A stretch of 64,000 nucleotides of DNA from Solirubrobacteraceae bacterium (GTDB lineage Bacteria; Actinomycetota; Thermoleophilia; Solirubrobacterales; Solirubrobacteraceae): positions 1 through 64,000 of the forward strand of contig JANJTP010000043.1 in assembly GCA_024711025.1 (NCBI GenBank), in the 5' to 3' direction. The notes under the pieces are model-generated. The model ran no database searches, was not told the DNA's origin, and saw only the letters and a list, made by a program, of their open reading frames with translations. Each line of letters opens with the position of its first letter. Positions within the stretch are counted from its first letter, which is position 1. Made by a program: the position numbers and the translations under genes. Positions 1 through 53,739 of the stretch are shown here, in pieces.

Positions 1-171
1 CGCGCGCGGGAAGACGCGCGTCGGGACGCCGGCCGCCGCGGCTCGCTCGAGGGCGCGCGCGCCGGGCTTGTCGGACGCCACCGCGACGAGCCGCGCCTCA
101 CGCCCGTGGACGGTGTCGAGCAGCGCCTGGAGGTTCGTGCCCTGGCCGGATGCGAGGACCGCGACCCTCAC
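1..171 (-). CDS. purN: Phosphoribosylglycinamide formyltransferase, N-terminal part (cut by the window edge)
   Basis: Not in the ORF track. Reverse strand from GTG at 171 reads VRVAVLASGQGTNLQALLDTVHGREARLVAVASDKPGARALERAAAAGVPTRVF, a typical PurN N-terminus; the start overlaps the recQ stop (GTGA). Confidence 0.85.
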   Translation of the reverse strand, partial: MRVAVLASGQGTNLQALLDTVHGREARLVAVASDKPGARALERAAAAGVPTRVFPRA

Positions 172-7687: not shown

Positions 7688-8068
7688 TCAGCTCAGCAGA
7701 CGGGTGCGGACGAGCGGCAGGGAGGCCTGTGCCGCGTCGCGCGTCAGCAGCGTCAGGTCGTGCGCCATGGCCGTCGCGGCGATCCACAGATCGTTCGTCG
7801 GGCGCCGGCCGCTCGCGGCCCGAAGCTGCCCGTAGCGGATGGCGACGTCGAGATCGAGCGCGAGTGCACGGGTCGCCGCGAGCACGGCGCTGAGCCGGCG
7901 CAGCCGCGCGGCGCGTGCCGCGTCGTCCCGGGCGAGCAGCACACCGGCCTCGAGCTCTCCGATGGTGACGACGCTGACGTGCCAGGCATCATCCGCCTCT
8001 CCCGCCCGGCTCTCGATCCCACCCCCGCCCGTGGCGACGAGCACGCTCGTGTCGAGCAGCAGCGTCAC
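7688..8068 (-). CDS. PIN-domain toxin, VapC family
   Basis: VTLLLDTSVLVATGG...VSVVTIGELEAGV...RPTNDLWIAATAMAHDLTLLTRD; overlaps the antitoxin stop by 4 nt. Confidence 0.88.
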   Translation of the reverse strand: MTLLLDTSVLVATGGGGIESRAGEADDAWHVSVVTIGELEAGVLLARDDAARAARLRRLSAVLAATRALALDLDVAIRYGQLRAASGRRPTNDLWIAATAMAHDLTLLTRDAAQASLPLVRTRLLS

Positions 8069-8325
8069 GCCCAGGGATCCGGGGCCTCGTCCCTGACGGT
8101 GCGGCGCTCGACCTCGAGCTCGGCGCCCCACTCCGCGTCGACCGGAGCGTCGCGCAGGATCGCCAGCAGATCGCGCAACGGCGTCGGACGGTCAGCGGAG
8201 GCCAGAGGCCCGAGCTCCGCGACCGGCCGACCGTCGACGGTGATCGTGAGCCGCTCACCCGCCTCGGCACGGCGCAGCACCTCGCTGACGTGATTGCGGA
8301 GCTCACGCTGTGGGATCGTTGCCAT
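8065..8325 (-). CDS. Phd/YefM-type antitoxin (VapB partner)
   Basis: MATIPQRELRNHVSEVLRRAEAGERLTITVDGRPVAELGPL. Confidence 0.87.
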   Translation of the reverse strand: MATIPQRELRNHVSEVLRRAEAGERLTITVDGRPVAELGPLASADRPTPLRDLLAILRDAPVDAEWGAELEVERRTVRDEAPDPWA

Positions 8326-10784: not shown

Positions 10785-12049
10785 GTCGTGAGGCGCTCCT
10801 TCGCGCGCAGCGCGATGTCGCGCCTGAGCTGGCGGCCGTCGAAGTCGACGAGCTCGGCGGCAGCATAGGCCGCGGCCCGGGCGGCGGCGGCGCTCTCGCC
10901 GAGCGCCGTGAGCCCCAGGACGCGCCCGCCGGCGGTCACGAGCCGGCCCTCGTCGTCGAGCCTCGTGCCCGCGTGGGTCACCTCGGCCCTGGCGGGCACC
11001 GCATCCAGGCCACGGATCTCGTCGCCGCCGCGAGGCGACTCCGGGTACCCGGCCGCGGCGAGCACGAGCGTCACGGCGGTGCGCGGGTCCCACTCGAGCC
11101 GTGCGCCCTCCAGTCCGCCGGGCCGCGTCGCGGCGAGCAGCAGATCGGCAAGGTCCCCGCGCAGCCGCGGCAGCACCGCCTGCGTCTCGGGGTCGCCGAA
11201 GCGCACGTTGTACTCGAGCACGCGCGGGCCGTCGGCGGTCAGCATGATCCCGGCGTACAGGACTCCGTGGAACGGGGTGCCGCGCCGTGCGAGCTCGTCG
11301 ACGATCGGCTGGTGGACCGCCGCGGCGATCTGGGCCGCGCGCTCCTCGTCGACCTCGGCGACCGGCGAGTACGAGCCCATCCCGCCGGTGTTCGGCCCTT
11401 CGTCGCCGTCGCCGATCCGCTTGTAGTCGCGGGCCGAGGCGAGCGGCACCGCGCGCACGCCGTCGCACAGGGCGAGCAGCGACAGCTCCTCGCCCTCGAG
11501 GTGCTCCTCGACGACGACCGGCCCCTCGCCGAAGCGCCGCTCGACGAGGAACGCGTCGAGCGCGGCACGCGCCTGCGCCTCGTCCTGCGCGATCACGACG
11601 CCCTTCCCCGCCGCGAGCCCGTCGAACTTGAGCACCACCGGATATCGGTCGATCGCCGCCATGCCGTCGTCGGGCGCCTCGACCGCGCGCCAGGCCGCCG
11701 TCGGGACGCCGGCCGCCGCCATGATCTCCTTCGCGTACGCCTTGGATCCCTCGAGGCGCGCCGCCGCGCGCCCGGGGCCGAACGCCGCGATCCCCTCCGC
11801 GGCGAGCGCGTCGACCAGACCCGCGACGAGCGGCGCCTCCGGCCCGACGACGACCAGGTCGACGCTCTCGGCGCGGGCCAGCGCGACGAGCCCGGGGACG
11901 TCGGCGACGGCCACGTCGTGCACCCGCGCGTCGCGGCCGATCCCGGGGTTGCCGGGGGCGCACAGGAGCTCGTGTGCCCGCGGCGAGCGCTTCAGCGCCC
12001 GCACGATCGCGTGCTCGCGACCGCCCGAGCCGACGACGAGGATCCGCAC
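10781..12049 (-). CDS. purD: Phosphoribosylamine-glycine ligase
   Basis: [23 protein letters not shown]...[17 protein letters not shown]-grasp. Confidence 0.96.
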
Positions 12050-12427: not shown

Positions 12428-15004
<2,577 letters not shown>

Positions 15005-15029: not shown

Positions 15030-15190
15030 TTTGCGTCAAGCACGGGTGCCGACGGCGTCGGCGGGCGGGGGGGCGGGGGACGCGCCGGGGACGGCGGGGT
15101 GGGCGGGCGCGGCGGGGACGGGGCGGCAGGCCTTGCCAGACCGGTACACACCGACGACGCGTCGCGTCTTCGTCTTGGGGCTACCGGAGC

Positions 15191-15304
15191 GTGGGAAACG
15201 TCGATCTCGCGTGCTTCGAGTCTCACCGCCTTACGTTTGCCACGTTCTGGCGTGGGCAAGGTCGAGCGGTGCCGACGAGCGCTCGCGAAGTCGACGTTCA
15301 CCAC
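15191..15304. repeat. 114-bp imperfect palindrome, copy 1 (54-bp arms, 6-bp loop TTCTGG)
   Basis: GTGGGAAACGTCGATCTCGCG...CACCGC...CCACG-TTCTGG-CGTGG...GCGGTG...CGCGAAGTCGACGTTCACCAC; 34 of 54 arm positions pair by hand alignment. Confidence 0.75.
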
Positions 15305-15341
15305 ACGTAGACCCCACCCCACCACACGTAGACCCCACCCC

Positions 15342-15550
15342 CGCGACCCTGCCAATGACGACCCGCCCCGCGAGCCCCCACGACCTGCCAACGACGACCC
15401 CGGCGAGCCCCCGCGACCTGCCAACGACGACCCCGGCGAGCCCGCCCCGCGACCCGGCCAACGACGACCGGGTCCACGGCTCCCGCGCGATGCGCCGGTT
15501 CGTCCCGCAACCTGCCCCGCGACCCTGCCAATGACGACCCGCCCCGCGAC
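15342..15550. repeat. Degenerate short tandem/direct repeats, unit about CGACC(C)TGCCAAYGACGACCC
   Basis: CGACCCTGCCAATGACGACCCGCCCCGCGA occurs twice, with intermediate variants CGACCTGCCAACGACGACCCCGGCGAGCCC (x2) and CGACCCGGCCAACGACGACCGGG. Confidence 0.8.
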
Positions 15551-15625: not shown

Positions 15626-16114
15626 TCAGCGTTCCCGCTCGACCGGGATCCGCCGCGCCGAGCGCGGGGGCGTGCGCACGTCGGACGCGCGGACGATCGC
15701 GGTCGAGTGGCGGATCGGCACGAGCTCGCCGCGCATCGAGCGGCGCACGCTGTCGAGCTCGGCCTCGAGCTCCTCGCGCATCCGCCGGCTGCGCGCCTCG
15801 AGCTGCTCGAGCCGGCGCCGGGCGCCCTCGAGCTGCGCCTCCAGCTCCAGCACGCGCTCGACCCCGGCGAGGTTGAGGCCCAGCTCGGTCGTCATCTCCT
15901 GGATGCGCCGCAGCCGCTCGACGTCGGCCTGCGAGTAGAGCCGCGTCCCCTTCGGCGAGCGCTGGGGCTCGATCAGCCCGCGCGCCTCGTACATCCGCAG
16001 GGTCTGCGGGTGCATGTCGGCCAGCTCGGCGGCGACCGAGATCATGAAGACGCCGCGCTCGACGTCGACCGAGATCCGGGTGCGCGTGCGCGGCGGGCGG
16101 CCGGGATGCGCCAT
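15626..16114 (-). CDS. hspR: MerR-family heat-shock repressor HspR
   Basis: VFMISVAAELADMHPQTLRMYEARGLIEPQRSPKGTRLYSQADVERLRRIQ; follows dnaK-grpE-dnaJ. Confidence 0.92.
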   Translation of the reverse strand: MAHPGRPPRTRTRISVDVERGVFMISVAAELADMHPQTLRMYEARGLIEPQRSPKGTRLYSQADVERLRRIQEMTTELGLNLAGVERVLELEAQLEGARRRLEQLEARSRRMREELEAELDSVRRSMRGELVPIRHSTAIVRASDVRTPPRSARRIPVERER

Positions 16115-35822: not shown

Positions 35823-36515
35823 ATGGGCGGGCTGCGCGTGCTGAGCTGGAATCTGTTCCACGGCCGCGCCCTGCCCGACGAGCCGCGTGAGCTGCTCGAC
35901 GAGTTCGCCGCGATGCTCGCCGGCTGGTCGTGGGACGTGGCGCTCCTGCAGGAGTGCCCGCCGTGGTGGCCGGCGCCGCTGGCCGGAGCGTGCGACGCGC
36001 GGGCCTTCGCGGCCCTCACCTCGCGCAACCAGCTACCGGCGGTGCGCCGCGCGCTCGCGAGGCGCCGGCCCGACGTGCTGCGCTCGAGCGGCGGCGGCTG
36101 CAACGCGATCCTCGTTCGCGGCTGCGCCGTGACGGCCCATGCCCGGCTACGGCTGCGGGCCTGGCCGGAGCGGCGGGTGCTGCACGCGGTACGGCTCGAC
36201 GACGGGCACGGGACGTGGCTGGCGAACCTCCACGCGAGCGCCCACGACGAGCGCCGTGCCCAGCGAGACCTCGACAGGGCGGCGACGACGGTGCTGCGCT
36301 GGGCGGCAGGCGCCCCCGCCGTGGTCGGCGGGGACATGAACACGAGGACCCCGGCGCTCGCCGGCTTCGAGCACGCCGGCGGCCACGTGCTCGACCACGT
36401 CTTCGCCCGCGGCCTGCCGGTCGTCGAGACCGCCCGCACGCTGTCGCGGCGCTGCGACGCGCTCGACGCGAACCTGTCCGACCACCGTCCGGTGATCGCG
36501 CGACTGCGGCGATGA
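35823..36515 (+). CDS. Endonuclease/exonuclease/phosphatase family protein
   Basis: LRVLSWNLFHG; VALLQECPP; VVGGDMNTR; LSDHRPVIARL. Confidence 0.87.
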   Translation: MGGLRVLSWNLFHGRALPDEPRELLDEFAAMLAGWSWDVALLQECPPWWPAPLAGACDARAFAALTSRNQLPAVRRALARRRPDVLRSSGGGCNAILVRGCAVTAHARLRLRAWPERRVLHAVRLDDGHGTWLANLHASAHDERRAQRDLDRAATTVLRWAAGAPAVVGGDMNTRTPALAGFEHAGGHVLDHVFARGLPVVETARTLSRRCDALDANLSDHRPVIARLRR

Positions 36516-36538: not shown

Positions 36539-36634
36539 CGGGGTGACCGGGGTGCGACGACTCGGGCCGGCCGGCACGGGGCCGGGGGGTGACCGAGCGA
36601 GCGACGACCCGGGCCGACCGGCAACGCAGGGGCC
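36539..36634. repeat. Two degenerate direct repeats (GGGGTGACCG...GCGACGACYCGGGCCGRCCGGCA)
   Basis: ggggtgaccggggtgcgacgactcgggccggccggca and gggggtgaccgagcgagcgacgacccgggccgaccggca. Confidence 0.65.
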
Positions 36635-36636
36635 AT

Positions 36637-36750
36637 GTGGCCAACGTCGATCTCGACGTGCCGCCGCGCCACCGGTTGACGAAACACACGCTCGGGCGTG
36701 GCTTTTGCAGACGGGTGGCCGGCGCGGTCAACGAACCTGGCGAAACCCAC
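36637..36750. repeat. 114-bp imperfect palindrome, copy 2 (54-bp arms, 6-bp loop CTCGGG)
   Basis: GTGGCCAACGTCGATCTCG...CACCG...CACG-CTCGGG-CGTG...GGGTGG...CCCAC; ungapped alignment to copy 1 with shared blocks AACGTCGATCTCG, CACCG, CACG-N6-CGTGG, CCACACG. Confidence 0.75.
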
Positions 36751-36895
36751 ACGGATCGGCGCTGGAGGGCAGCGAAGCCGTGCGAGACCCTGCGCTGTCC
36801 GGCCCAGCCGCGCCACAGAGGCGACGCACGCCGCCTGCTCGTGCCGGCCCCCGCCCCACTCACCGCCGCTCAGCGCCGCGCCCGCCGCACACCAC

Positions 36896-37410
36896 TCAGC
36901 GCCGCGCCGGCGGCCCACCGCCGGCCTCGCCCGGGCCGGGGCGCCGCAGCCCGAAGCCGCGCAAGACGAGCAGGGCTCGCTCGCCGAGCGAGCCGCGGCG
37001 CGGAAGCAGGCCGACCTGCACGCCGGCGTCGTAGGCGTCGAGGAAGACGCGTACCCGCCAGAGGCTCTCACCTGGCGGGTCGAGCTCGCCGTAGAGCACG
37101 GCGTGCACCGCGACGAGGCGCCCGGAGGGAACGATCCCCTCGAGCTCGCCCAGGTGCGTGCCGGCGATCCTGAGCGGGGCGGCGACGAACCGCCCACCCG
37201 TCAGCCGCTCGCCGGCCGGCTCCACCTTCAGGTCCGGGAAGGCCGCCCACAGGCGCGCCGCGTGCTCACCGAGCTCGCCAGGGCCGCACAGCGGCTCGCG
37301 CAGGAACGGGTCCTCCCAGTGCAGGTCGACGGCGCACATCTCGCGGAAGGCGGCGCGGCGCCGCTCCATCCAGGCCCCGGCGAGCGCATCGACAAGCTCG
37401 CCGGGATCCA

Positions 37411-37411
<1 letters not shown>
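36896..37411 (-). CDS. SnoaL-like (NTF2 fold) protein
   Basis: MDPGELVDALAGAWMERRRAAFREMCAVDLHWEDPFLREPLCGPGELGEHAARLWAAFPDLKVEPAGERL; overlaps the thiG stop. Confidence 0.78.
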
Positions 37412-53096: not shown

Positions 53097-53348
53097 ATGA
53101 GGGTTTCGATCGACAAGGCGGGCCGCGTCGTGATCCCGAAGCGGGTGCGCGACGAGCTTGGACTGCTGCCGGGTCAGGACCTCGAGCTGAACACCCGGAG
53201 CGACGGGATACACATCTCCGTCCCTCCGCTGCGCGTGCGGATCATCGGCGAGGGGCGCGACTCGCGGCTCGTCGCTGACGACCAGGTGCCGCATCTGAGC
53301 GACGAGACGATCCGCGCGACGCTCGAGGCCGTGCGTGATCGTCGCTGA
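53097..53348 (+). CDS. AbrB/MazE-type antitoxin (VapB)
   Basis: MRVSIDKAGRVVIPKRVRDELGLLPGQDLELNTRSDGIHISVPPL. Confidence 0.88.
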   Translation: MRVSIDKAGRVVIPKRVRDELGLLPGQDLELNTRSDGIHISVPPLRVRIIGEGRDSRLVADDQVPHLSDETIRATLEAVRDRR

Positions 53349-53739
53349 CACAAGCGTCGTCGTTCCGGCGATCGCGACGTGGCACGAGGCTCACGAGGCG
53401 TGCCGCTCGGCCATCGCCGAGACCGAGGCGATCGTGGGCCACGTGGCGGTGGAGACGTTCAGCGTCCTCACTCGCCTTCCCGAGCAGAGCCGGCTGTCGC
53501 CGGAGATCACCGCGACGATGATCGCCCGGCTCTTCCCCGGAGCGCTCCTCGCGCTGTCGGCCGATGGAGTGCGCTCCTTCCTCTCGACGCTCTCGCGGAT
53601 GGGCCTCGTCGGCGGCGCCGTGTACGACGCGCTCGTGGCCTACACCGCACTGGACGCGGGCGCCTCTCTCATGACGCGTGATCGGCGCGCTCTGCCGACT
53701 TACGCGGCGATCGGCGTCGAAGTGGACTTCATGGACTGA
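53335..53739 (+). CDS. PIN-domain toxin, VapC family
   Basis: VIVADTSVVVPAIATWHEAHEAC...VGGAVYDALVAYTALDAGASLMTRDRRALPTYAAIGVEVDFMD. Confidence 0.88.
   Translation: MIVADTSVVVPAIATWHEAHEACRSAIAETEAIVGHVAVETFSVLTRLPEQSRLSPEITATMIARLFPGALLALSADGVRSFLSTLSRMGLVGGAVYDALVAYTALDAGASLMTRDRRALPTYAAIGVEVDFMD

What the first reader, a model, noticed from the sequence alone, without database searches (positions are those of the whole stretch)
36637..36750. Second copy of the 114-bp palindromic element about 21 kb away, identical architecture
Seen: exactly 54+6+54 bp again (loop CTCGGG), intergenic between an EEP-family gene and a SnoaL-like gene. Aligned ungapped to copy 1 it keeps GTGG..AACGTCGATCTCG, CACCG, CACG-N6-CGTGG and CCACACG at the same offsets while most other positions differ. 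Preserved blocks and spacing amid heavy divergence suggest selection on structure or on binding half-sites rather than recent duplication. Centre pairing is kept with different sequence (CCACG-CCAGAA-CGTGG versus CACGC-CCGA-GCGTG on the reverse strand), which looks compensatory.
Basis: partly seen in the sequence, partly recalled or inferred. Interest (0 to 1): 0.82.

Follow-up and report, generated by a model that had tools for sequence, protein, structure and literature searches.

The report
Sixteen-copy four-box palindromic intergenic DNA element
The sequence is one of about sixteen copies of a 120-base symmetric DNA element scattered between genes of one actinobacterial genome; it looks like a set of four protein-binding boxes held at fixed spacing, matches no named repeat family that I could find, and resembles known small mobile bacterial repeats in how it is spread.

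Summary
The element is 120 bp (36634-36753; copy 1 at 15188-15307). The whole genome holds 15 full-length copies and one broken one. Fourteen score 71-84 bits with a covariance model, one scores 37, and nothing else comes close: in leave-one-out scoring copies get 40-102 bits and the best non-copy gets -20. All but one copy are exactly 120 bp, and all lie between genes.

No other genome searched has it: none of the other 231 genomes of the order, none of 398 sampled from the class, and none of about 85,000 GTDB species by exact pattern.

Symmetry within a copy is no better than between copies (p=0.17), and covariation is within shuffles. The palindrome is instead four related ~19-bp boxes (GTGGNNWWCGYCRANC-like; order right, left, right, left). 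Spacer sequence between copies is near random (34% against 31% expected) while the rest is 65% identical.

At three loci related genomes have 30-110-bp gaps where this genome has about 600 bp with the element. One pair of copies is a 91% duplicate ending at the element's edges.

Best reading: a lineage-specific, REPIN/MITE-like dispersed element recognised as duplex DNA by an unidentified multimeric protein and kept by selection. No RAYT was found.

The parts
36634..36753 (+). Copy 2 of the 120-bp four-box element (the finding; 114 bp core at 36637-36750)
   Evidence: 78.0 bits
36637..36655 (+). Outer box 1 of copy 2 (GTGGCCAACGTCGATCTCG)
36671..36689 (-). Inner box 2 of copy 2, pointing away from the centre
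   Evidence: position-wise consensus
36690..36697 (.). Central 8-bp dyad spacer of copy 2
36698..36716 (+). Inner box 3 of copy 2, pointing away from the centre
36732..36750 (-). Outer box 4 of copy 2 (GTGGGTTTCGCCAGGTTCG on the - strand)
15188..15307 (-). Copy 1 of the element, between clpB and hspR
   Evidence: 78.2 bits
15191..15209 (+). Outer box of copy 1 (GTGGGAAACGTCGATCTCG)
15225..15243 (-). Inner box of copy 1
15252..15270 (+). Inner box of copy 1
15286..15304 (-). Outer box of copy 1 (GTGGTGAACGTCGACTTCG on the - strand)
35823..36515 (+). Left neighbour of copy 2: endonuclease/exonuclease/phosphatase-like gene (its 3' end faces the element)
   Evidence: gene call; relative near a SnoaL-like gene in Paraconexibacter
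36896..37411 (-). Right neighbour of copy 2: SnoaL-like gene (its 3' end faces the element)
12428..15004 (-). Left neighbour of copy 1: clpB
15626..16114 (-). Right neighbour of copy 1: MerR-type regulator of the hspR kind

Best explanation
This is a lineage-specific family of dispersed, non-coding, intergenic 120-bp elements. Each holds four copies of a ~19-bp box (about GTGGNNWWCGYCRANC plus an outer TCG or inner GTG tail) in the order right, left, right, left at rigid spacing. Shown: copy number, intergenic location, exact length, box conservation against near-random spacers, absence from relatives, larger gaps at orthologous positions, and one duplicate whose similarity ends at the element's edges. 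Inferred: a multimeric protein (two dimers or a tetramer) recognises the four boxes in double-stranded DNA; the A/T-only positions 10-11 suggest minor-groove contacts between GTGG and CG major-groove contacts. The element spreads rarely in trans, as REPINs and MITEs do, and copies whose boxes or spacing break are lost, either because binding is useful to the host or because only intact copies can be copied again.
For: Family: 14 copies at 71-84 bits, one at 37, one broken; leave-one-out scores 40-102 against at most -20 elsewhere in 451 kb. Rigid length: 13 seed copies align without a gap over 120 columns; the model search, which allows gaps, found no length class other than one 121-bp copy and the broken one. 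Boxes conserved, spacers near random. Symmetry is not pairing. Intergenic, with mostly tandem or convergent neighbours. Inserted on this lineage: gaps of 621, 673 and 579 bp here against about 49, 45 and 100 bp in congener G008 at clpB-hspR, DUF1385-prfA and pilM-prepilin peptidase. Copying: the two C12 copies are 91% identical over 137 bp, 5.3 kb apart, with unrelated flanks. No other genome has it.
Against: No protein has been identified, and no target-site duplication is seen at the ends. No autonomous parent with matching ends and no Y1 transposase were found. The near-random spacers imply deep age, which fits poorly with a purely selfish element, while absence from all congeners fits poorly with an old essential site. 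The copy-bearing gaps are about 450-550 bp longer than one element accounts for.
Confidence: 0.55

Rival explanations
1. It is mainly a functional chromosomal site (nucleoid organisation, replication-fork control or a global regulator) that happens to be lineage-specific; the copies are kept in place by host selection and mobility is past or irrelevant.
For: Boxes and spacing kept while spacers are near random; almost no intermediate decayed copies; copies spread over 13 contigs. Tandem repeats are enriched in copy-bearing gaps (27% against 9% of bases; 10/13 against 18/44 gaps of at least 250 bp, p=0.03), as repeated fork stalling might cause.
Against: Absent from all congeners; neighbouring genes share no theme; the C12 pair shows copying; intergenic only, unlike short chromosome-organising motifs.
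Confidence: 0.25
2. Ordinary MITE derived from an insertion sequence, mobilised by that sequence's transposase.
For: Inverted terminal repeats, small size, non-coding, intergenic, insertion relative to relatives.
Against: No target-site duplications. No insertion sequence with these ends was found; the IS3- and IS30-like genes on C24 have no matching boxes nearby. Strong internal boxes and rigid length are not expected of a MITE. Spacers are saturated but boxes are not.
Confidence: 0.12
3. RNA element: transcribed hairpin, small RNA, riboswitch or terminator.
For: Individual copies fold better than shuffles, some strongly (z down to -8.7).
Against: No covariation beyond shuffles and no common fold; no Rfam match; WW and NN positions of opposite arms do not pair; several copies fold barely better than shuffles.
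Confidence: 0.05
4. Protein-coding palindrome, like Rickettsia palindromic elements.
For: Length is a multiple of 3 and one frame is open in 12 of 15 copies.
Against: Every frame has stops in at least 3 copies; invariant bases fall on all codon positions; copies lie between genes.
Confidence: 0.02

Closest known systems
REPINs (REP doublets mobilised by RAYT; PMC3116915, PMC8049555)
   Same: Inverted conserved ends around diverse spacers, dispersed in intergenic DNA, long persistence, local tandem amplification at some copies
   Different: No RAYT (Y1_Tnp) detected; four boxes, not two; symmetry is not base pairing; one fixed length of 120 bp
ERIC/IRU/RU-1 (127-bp enterobacterial intergenic repeat; PMC2229807)
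   Same: Size, inverted-repeat layout, intergenic, tens of copies
   Different: ERIC is listed with 7-bp terminal repeats, TA termini and target duplications; here ~22-bp ends without them, GC-rich, actinobacterial, rigid four-box layout
Bacterial MITEs such as RUP and Correia/NEMIS (PMC2229807, PMC10969869)
   Same: Non-coding, 100-160 bp, terminal inverted repeats, insertion relative to relatives
   Different: No target-site duplication, no parent insertion sequence with matching ends, internal boxes conserved as well as the ends
CIR, Caulobacter CcrM-associated intergenic repeats (PMC2229807)
   Same: Intergenic; two halves that can each be read as an inverted repeat
   Different: No relation in sequence is claimed or tested; half-hairpin pairing here is below shuffles

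Membership tests
REPIN/RAYT | Two inverted conserved REP sequences flanking a diverse spacer | tested here: met
   Outer ends conserved and inverted, spacers 23-36 and 85-98 diverse; but two further inner boxes exist
REPIN/RAYT | Cognate single-copy RAYT (Y1 transposase) in the genome | tested here: not met
   PF01797 search of the own genome, 0 hits at E<=0.1; control genomes positive; assembly 97% complete
REPIN/RAYT | Conserved hairpin formation | tested here: not met
   No covariation beyond shuffles; own-arm match equals cross-copy match
MITE | Short, non-coding, terminal inverted repeats | tested here: met
MITE | Target-site duplication | tested here: not met
   No consistent direct repeat at the ends of 15 copies
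MITE | Ends match those of an autonomous insertion sequence | tested here: inconclusive
   None found in a 72-contig draft; not every transposase family was searched
ERIC | Homology to the 127-bp ERIC consensus | not tested
   The ERIC consensus was not compared; filed only as an analogue in size and location
Known structured RNA (Rfam) | Match to a covariance model | tested here: not met
   No match for the window at gathering thresholds or for four copies at E<=1

The most novel reading that the evidence does not exclude
A new class of chromosomal cis-site: a rigid 120-bp four-box duplex site, seeded across one lineage's chromosome by rare copying, then held by host selection as docking points for a lineage-specific DNA-bridging or fork-controlling protein, which would also explain the tandem-repeat growth around the sites.
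Probability: 0.2. Interest if true: 0.75.

Novelty: new variant of a known kind. Interest (0 to 1): 0.5.

Why it matters
Small bacterial repeats are usually either decaying relics of mobile elements or elements whose hairpin is what matters (my summary of general knowledge). Here spacers are scrambled while four boxes and their exact distances persist, so each copy seems to have been kept individually for a long time in a lineage whose relatives lack it. That makes a clear test of whether small repeats can become host-maintained protein-docking sites, and it gives a specific bait sequence for finding the protein.

Tried and rejected
Base-pairing constraint on the full palindrome and on the two half-hairpins: rejected. 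Known RNA family: none. Protein coding: rejected. RAYT in the genome: none. IS3/IS30 genes on C24 as parent: no box-like ends. Occurrence elsewhere: none in 60 relatives, 231 other genomes of the order, 398 of the class, the GTDB pattern scan or IMG/VR; the one hit in G019 (31.9 bits) lies inside an argS-like reading frame and is taken as chance. Plasmid and phage similarity: only short weak matches. The empty-site test at the finding's own locus is uninformative: EEP and SnoaL-like genes are not adjacent, or have long gaps, in the relatives checked. Literature searches for a described element of this kind in these actinobacteria found nothing in the held library.

Full report
Observation. The sequence at 36637-36750 is as described: 54+6+54 with loop CTCGGG and the named blocks at the same offsets as in 15191-15304. 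By plain identity (60/114) the two copies barely exceed the best chance window (54/114), so the claim needed more copies to stand. Searching the window's own genome (3.14 Mb, 72 contigs) with the terminal motif found inverted pairs of ends exactly 120 bp apart at several sites. Thirteen copies were extracted and align over 120 columns without a gap. A sequence-only model of them (R1) finds 14 copies at 71-84 bits, one at 36.7 bits (C51), one broken (C68, 95 bp), and then noise. A leave-one-out symmetric weight matrix gives every full-length copy 40-102 bits against at most -20 for any other place in 451 kb.

Anatomy. Position counts over both arms show an outer box GTGTGGNNWWCG(T/C)C(G/A)ANCTCG and, facing outward from the centre, an inner box of the form GTGGNNNWCG(C/T)(C/A)GANC(G)GTG. 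The four boxes lie at model positions 4-22 (+), 38-56 (-), 65-83 (+) and 99-117 (-), with ~15-bp free spacers in each half and an 8-bp centre; like-oriented boxes are 61 bp apart. Positions 10-11 are A or T, and opposite arms often both carry A, so they do not pair.

Pairing or sequence? On 13 copies, standard-pair counts and the covariation score for the full palindrome are within shuffles (34/500 and 33/500), the half-hairpins are below shuffles (487/500), and RNAalifold finds only -9.5 kcal/mol with no covariation bonus. The two arms of a copy resemble each other no more than arms of different copies (473 against 462.4, sd 10.9, p=0.17). Some copies fold very well and others barely better than shuffles. 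The symmetry is therefore conserved sequence in fourfold arrangement, as expected for a site read by a multimeric protein on duplex DNA. This last step is inference. With 13 copies, a weak pairing constraint cannot be excluded.

Age and selection. Between copies the spacers are 34% identical (31% expected from composition), the remaining columns 65%. Only the C12 pair is young: 91% identical over 137 bp, similarity starting about 3 bp before the element and ending about 14 bp after it, 5.3 kb apart, one copy 121 bp long. Decayed intermediates are almost lacking. A drifting repeat should not look like this; either individual copies are kept by selection, or copying passes on boxes while spacers change. 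The copies were partly found by their boxes, which biases toward box conservation, but the wide empty score range argues that this is not the main cause.

Location and origin. With a simple codon-usage gene finder the copies fall between genes, next to unrelated genes (clpB/hspR, prfA, typA, glutamate dehydrogenase, pilM, metK, cytochrome and ccdA-like genes, a LysR-type regulator; names judged from the translations), in tandem or convergent gaps; no clear divergent case was seen (two weak ORF calls overlap copies at C12 and C51). At three testable loci relatives have short gaps: clpB-hspR 49 bp in G008 against 621 here, DUF1385-prfA about 45 against 673, pilM-prepilin peptidase about 100 against 579. 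The element thus arrived on this lineage, with more added DNA than its own 120 bp. Copy-bearing gaps are rich in tandem repeats (27% of bases against 9% in other gaps; 10/13 against 18/44 gaps of at least 250 bp, p=0.03), and several copies have a piece of their own end repeated in the adjacent flank (C61, C13, C12; also C15 and the window's copy 1). The first comparison with window gaps alone looked stronger than the larger sample bears out.

Distribution. No copy in 60 relatives, in the other 231 genomes of the order or in 398 genomes of the class; no exact match of a degenerate full-length pattern in the GTDB species collection or IMG/VR (the pattern works on the window). The pattern was fitted to the 13 copies, so more distant versions would be missed. 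The closest genomes share only about 78% ClpB identity, so the branch is long. The nearest named relative found through the EEP-like gene is Paraconexibacter antarcticus.

Mechanism. Most likely a non-autonomous dispersed element in the manner of REPINs, ERIC and MITEs for its spread, but read as duplex DNA through four boxes. REPINs also combine conserved ends, highly diverse spacers and long persistence (PMC8049555), and they are the closest known thing. Membership fails on the RAYT (none by PF01797) and on hairpin conservation. MITE membership fails on target-site duplication. Host-maintained function is the strongest rival and may be combined with it. No protein is known, and the draft assembly may lack one.

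Noticed in passing
15299-15341 and 15338-15469: Minisatellites in the clpB-hspR gap: a perfect 2 x 21 bp repeat that includes the end of copy 1, and a 33-bp unit repeated about 4 times.
   Followed up: partly
L021 (G000:C15, about 11110-11330): About six tandem ~32-bp units, most starting CGTGTGGCGAACG, directly outside one copy; the unit joins the element's end to its flank.
   Followed up: partly
L117 1636-1880 (G000:C12, after 86834): Two further direct repeats of the right end of a copy in its own flank.
   Followed up: partly
L244/L245 (G000:C24:15000-16000): IS3-like and IS30-like transposase genes lie next to each other in opposite orientation; no element boxes nearby.
   Followed up: partly
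7688-8325 and 53097-53739: Two small gene pairs whose translations look like VapBC-type toxin-antitoxin modules (PIN-like and antitoxin-like), from gene calls only.
   Followed up: no
L106 (G000:C60), gene at 1622-2641: A gene resembling AbiEi/DUF559 proteins (wHTH plus nuclease-like) starts 3 bp after one copy; the family was judged by eye, not by a profile.
   Followed up: no
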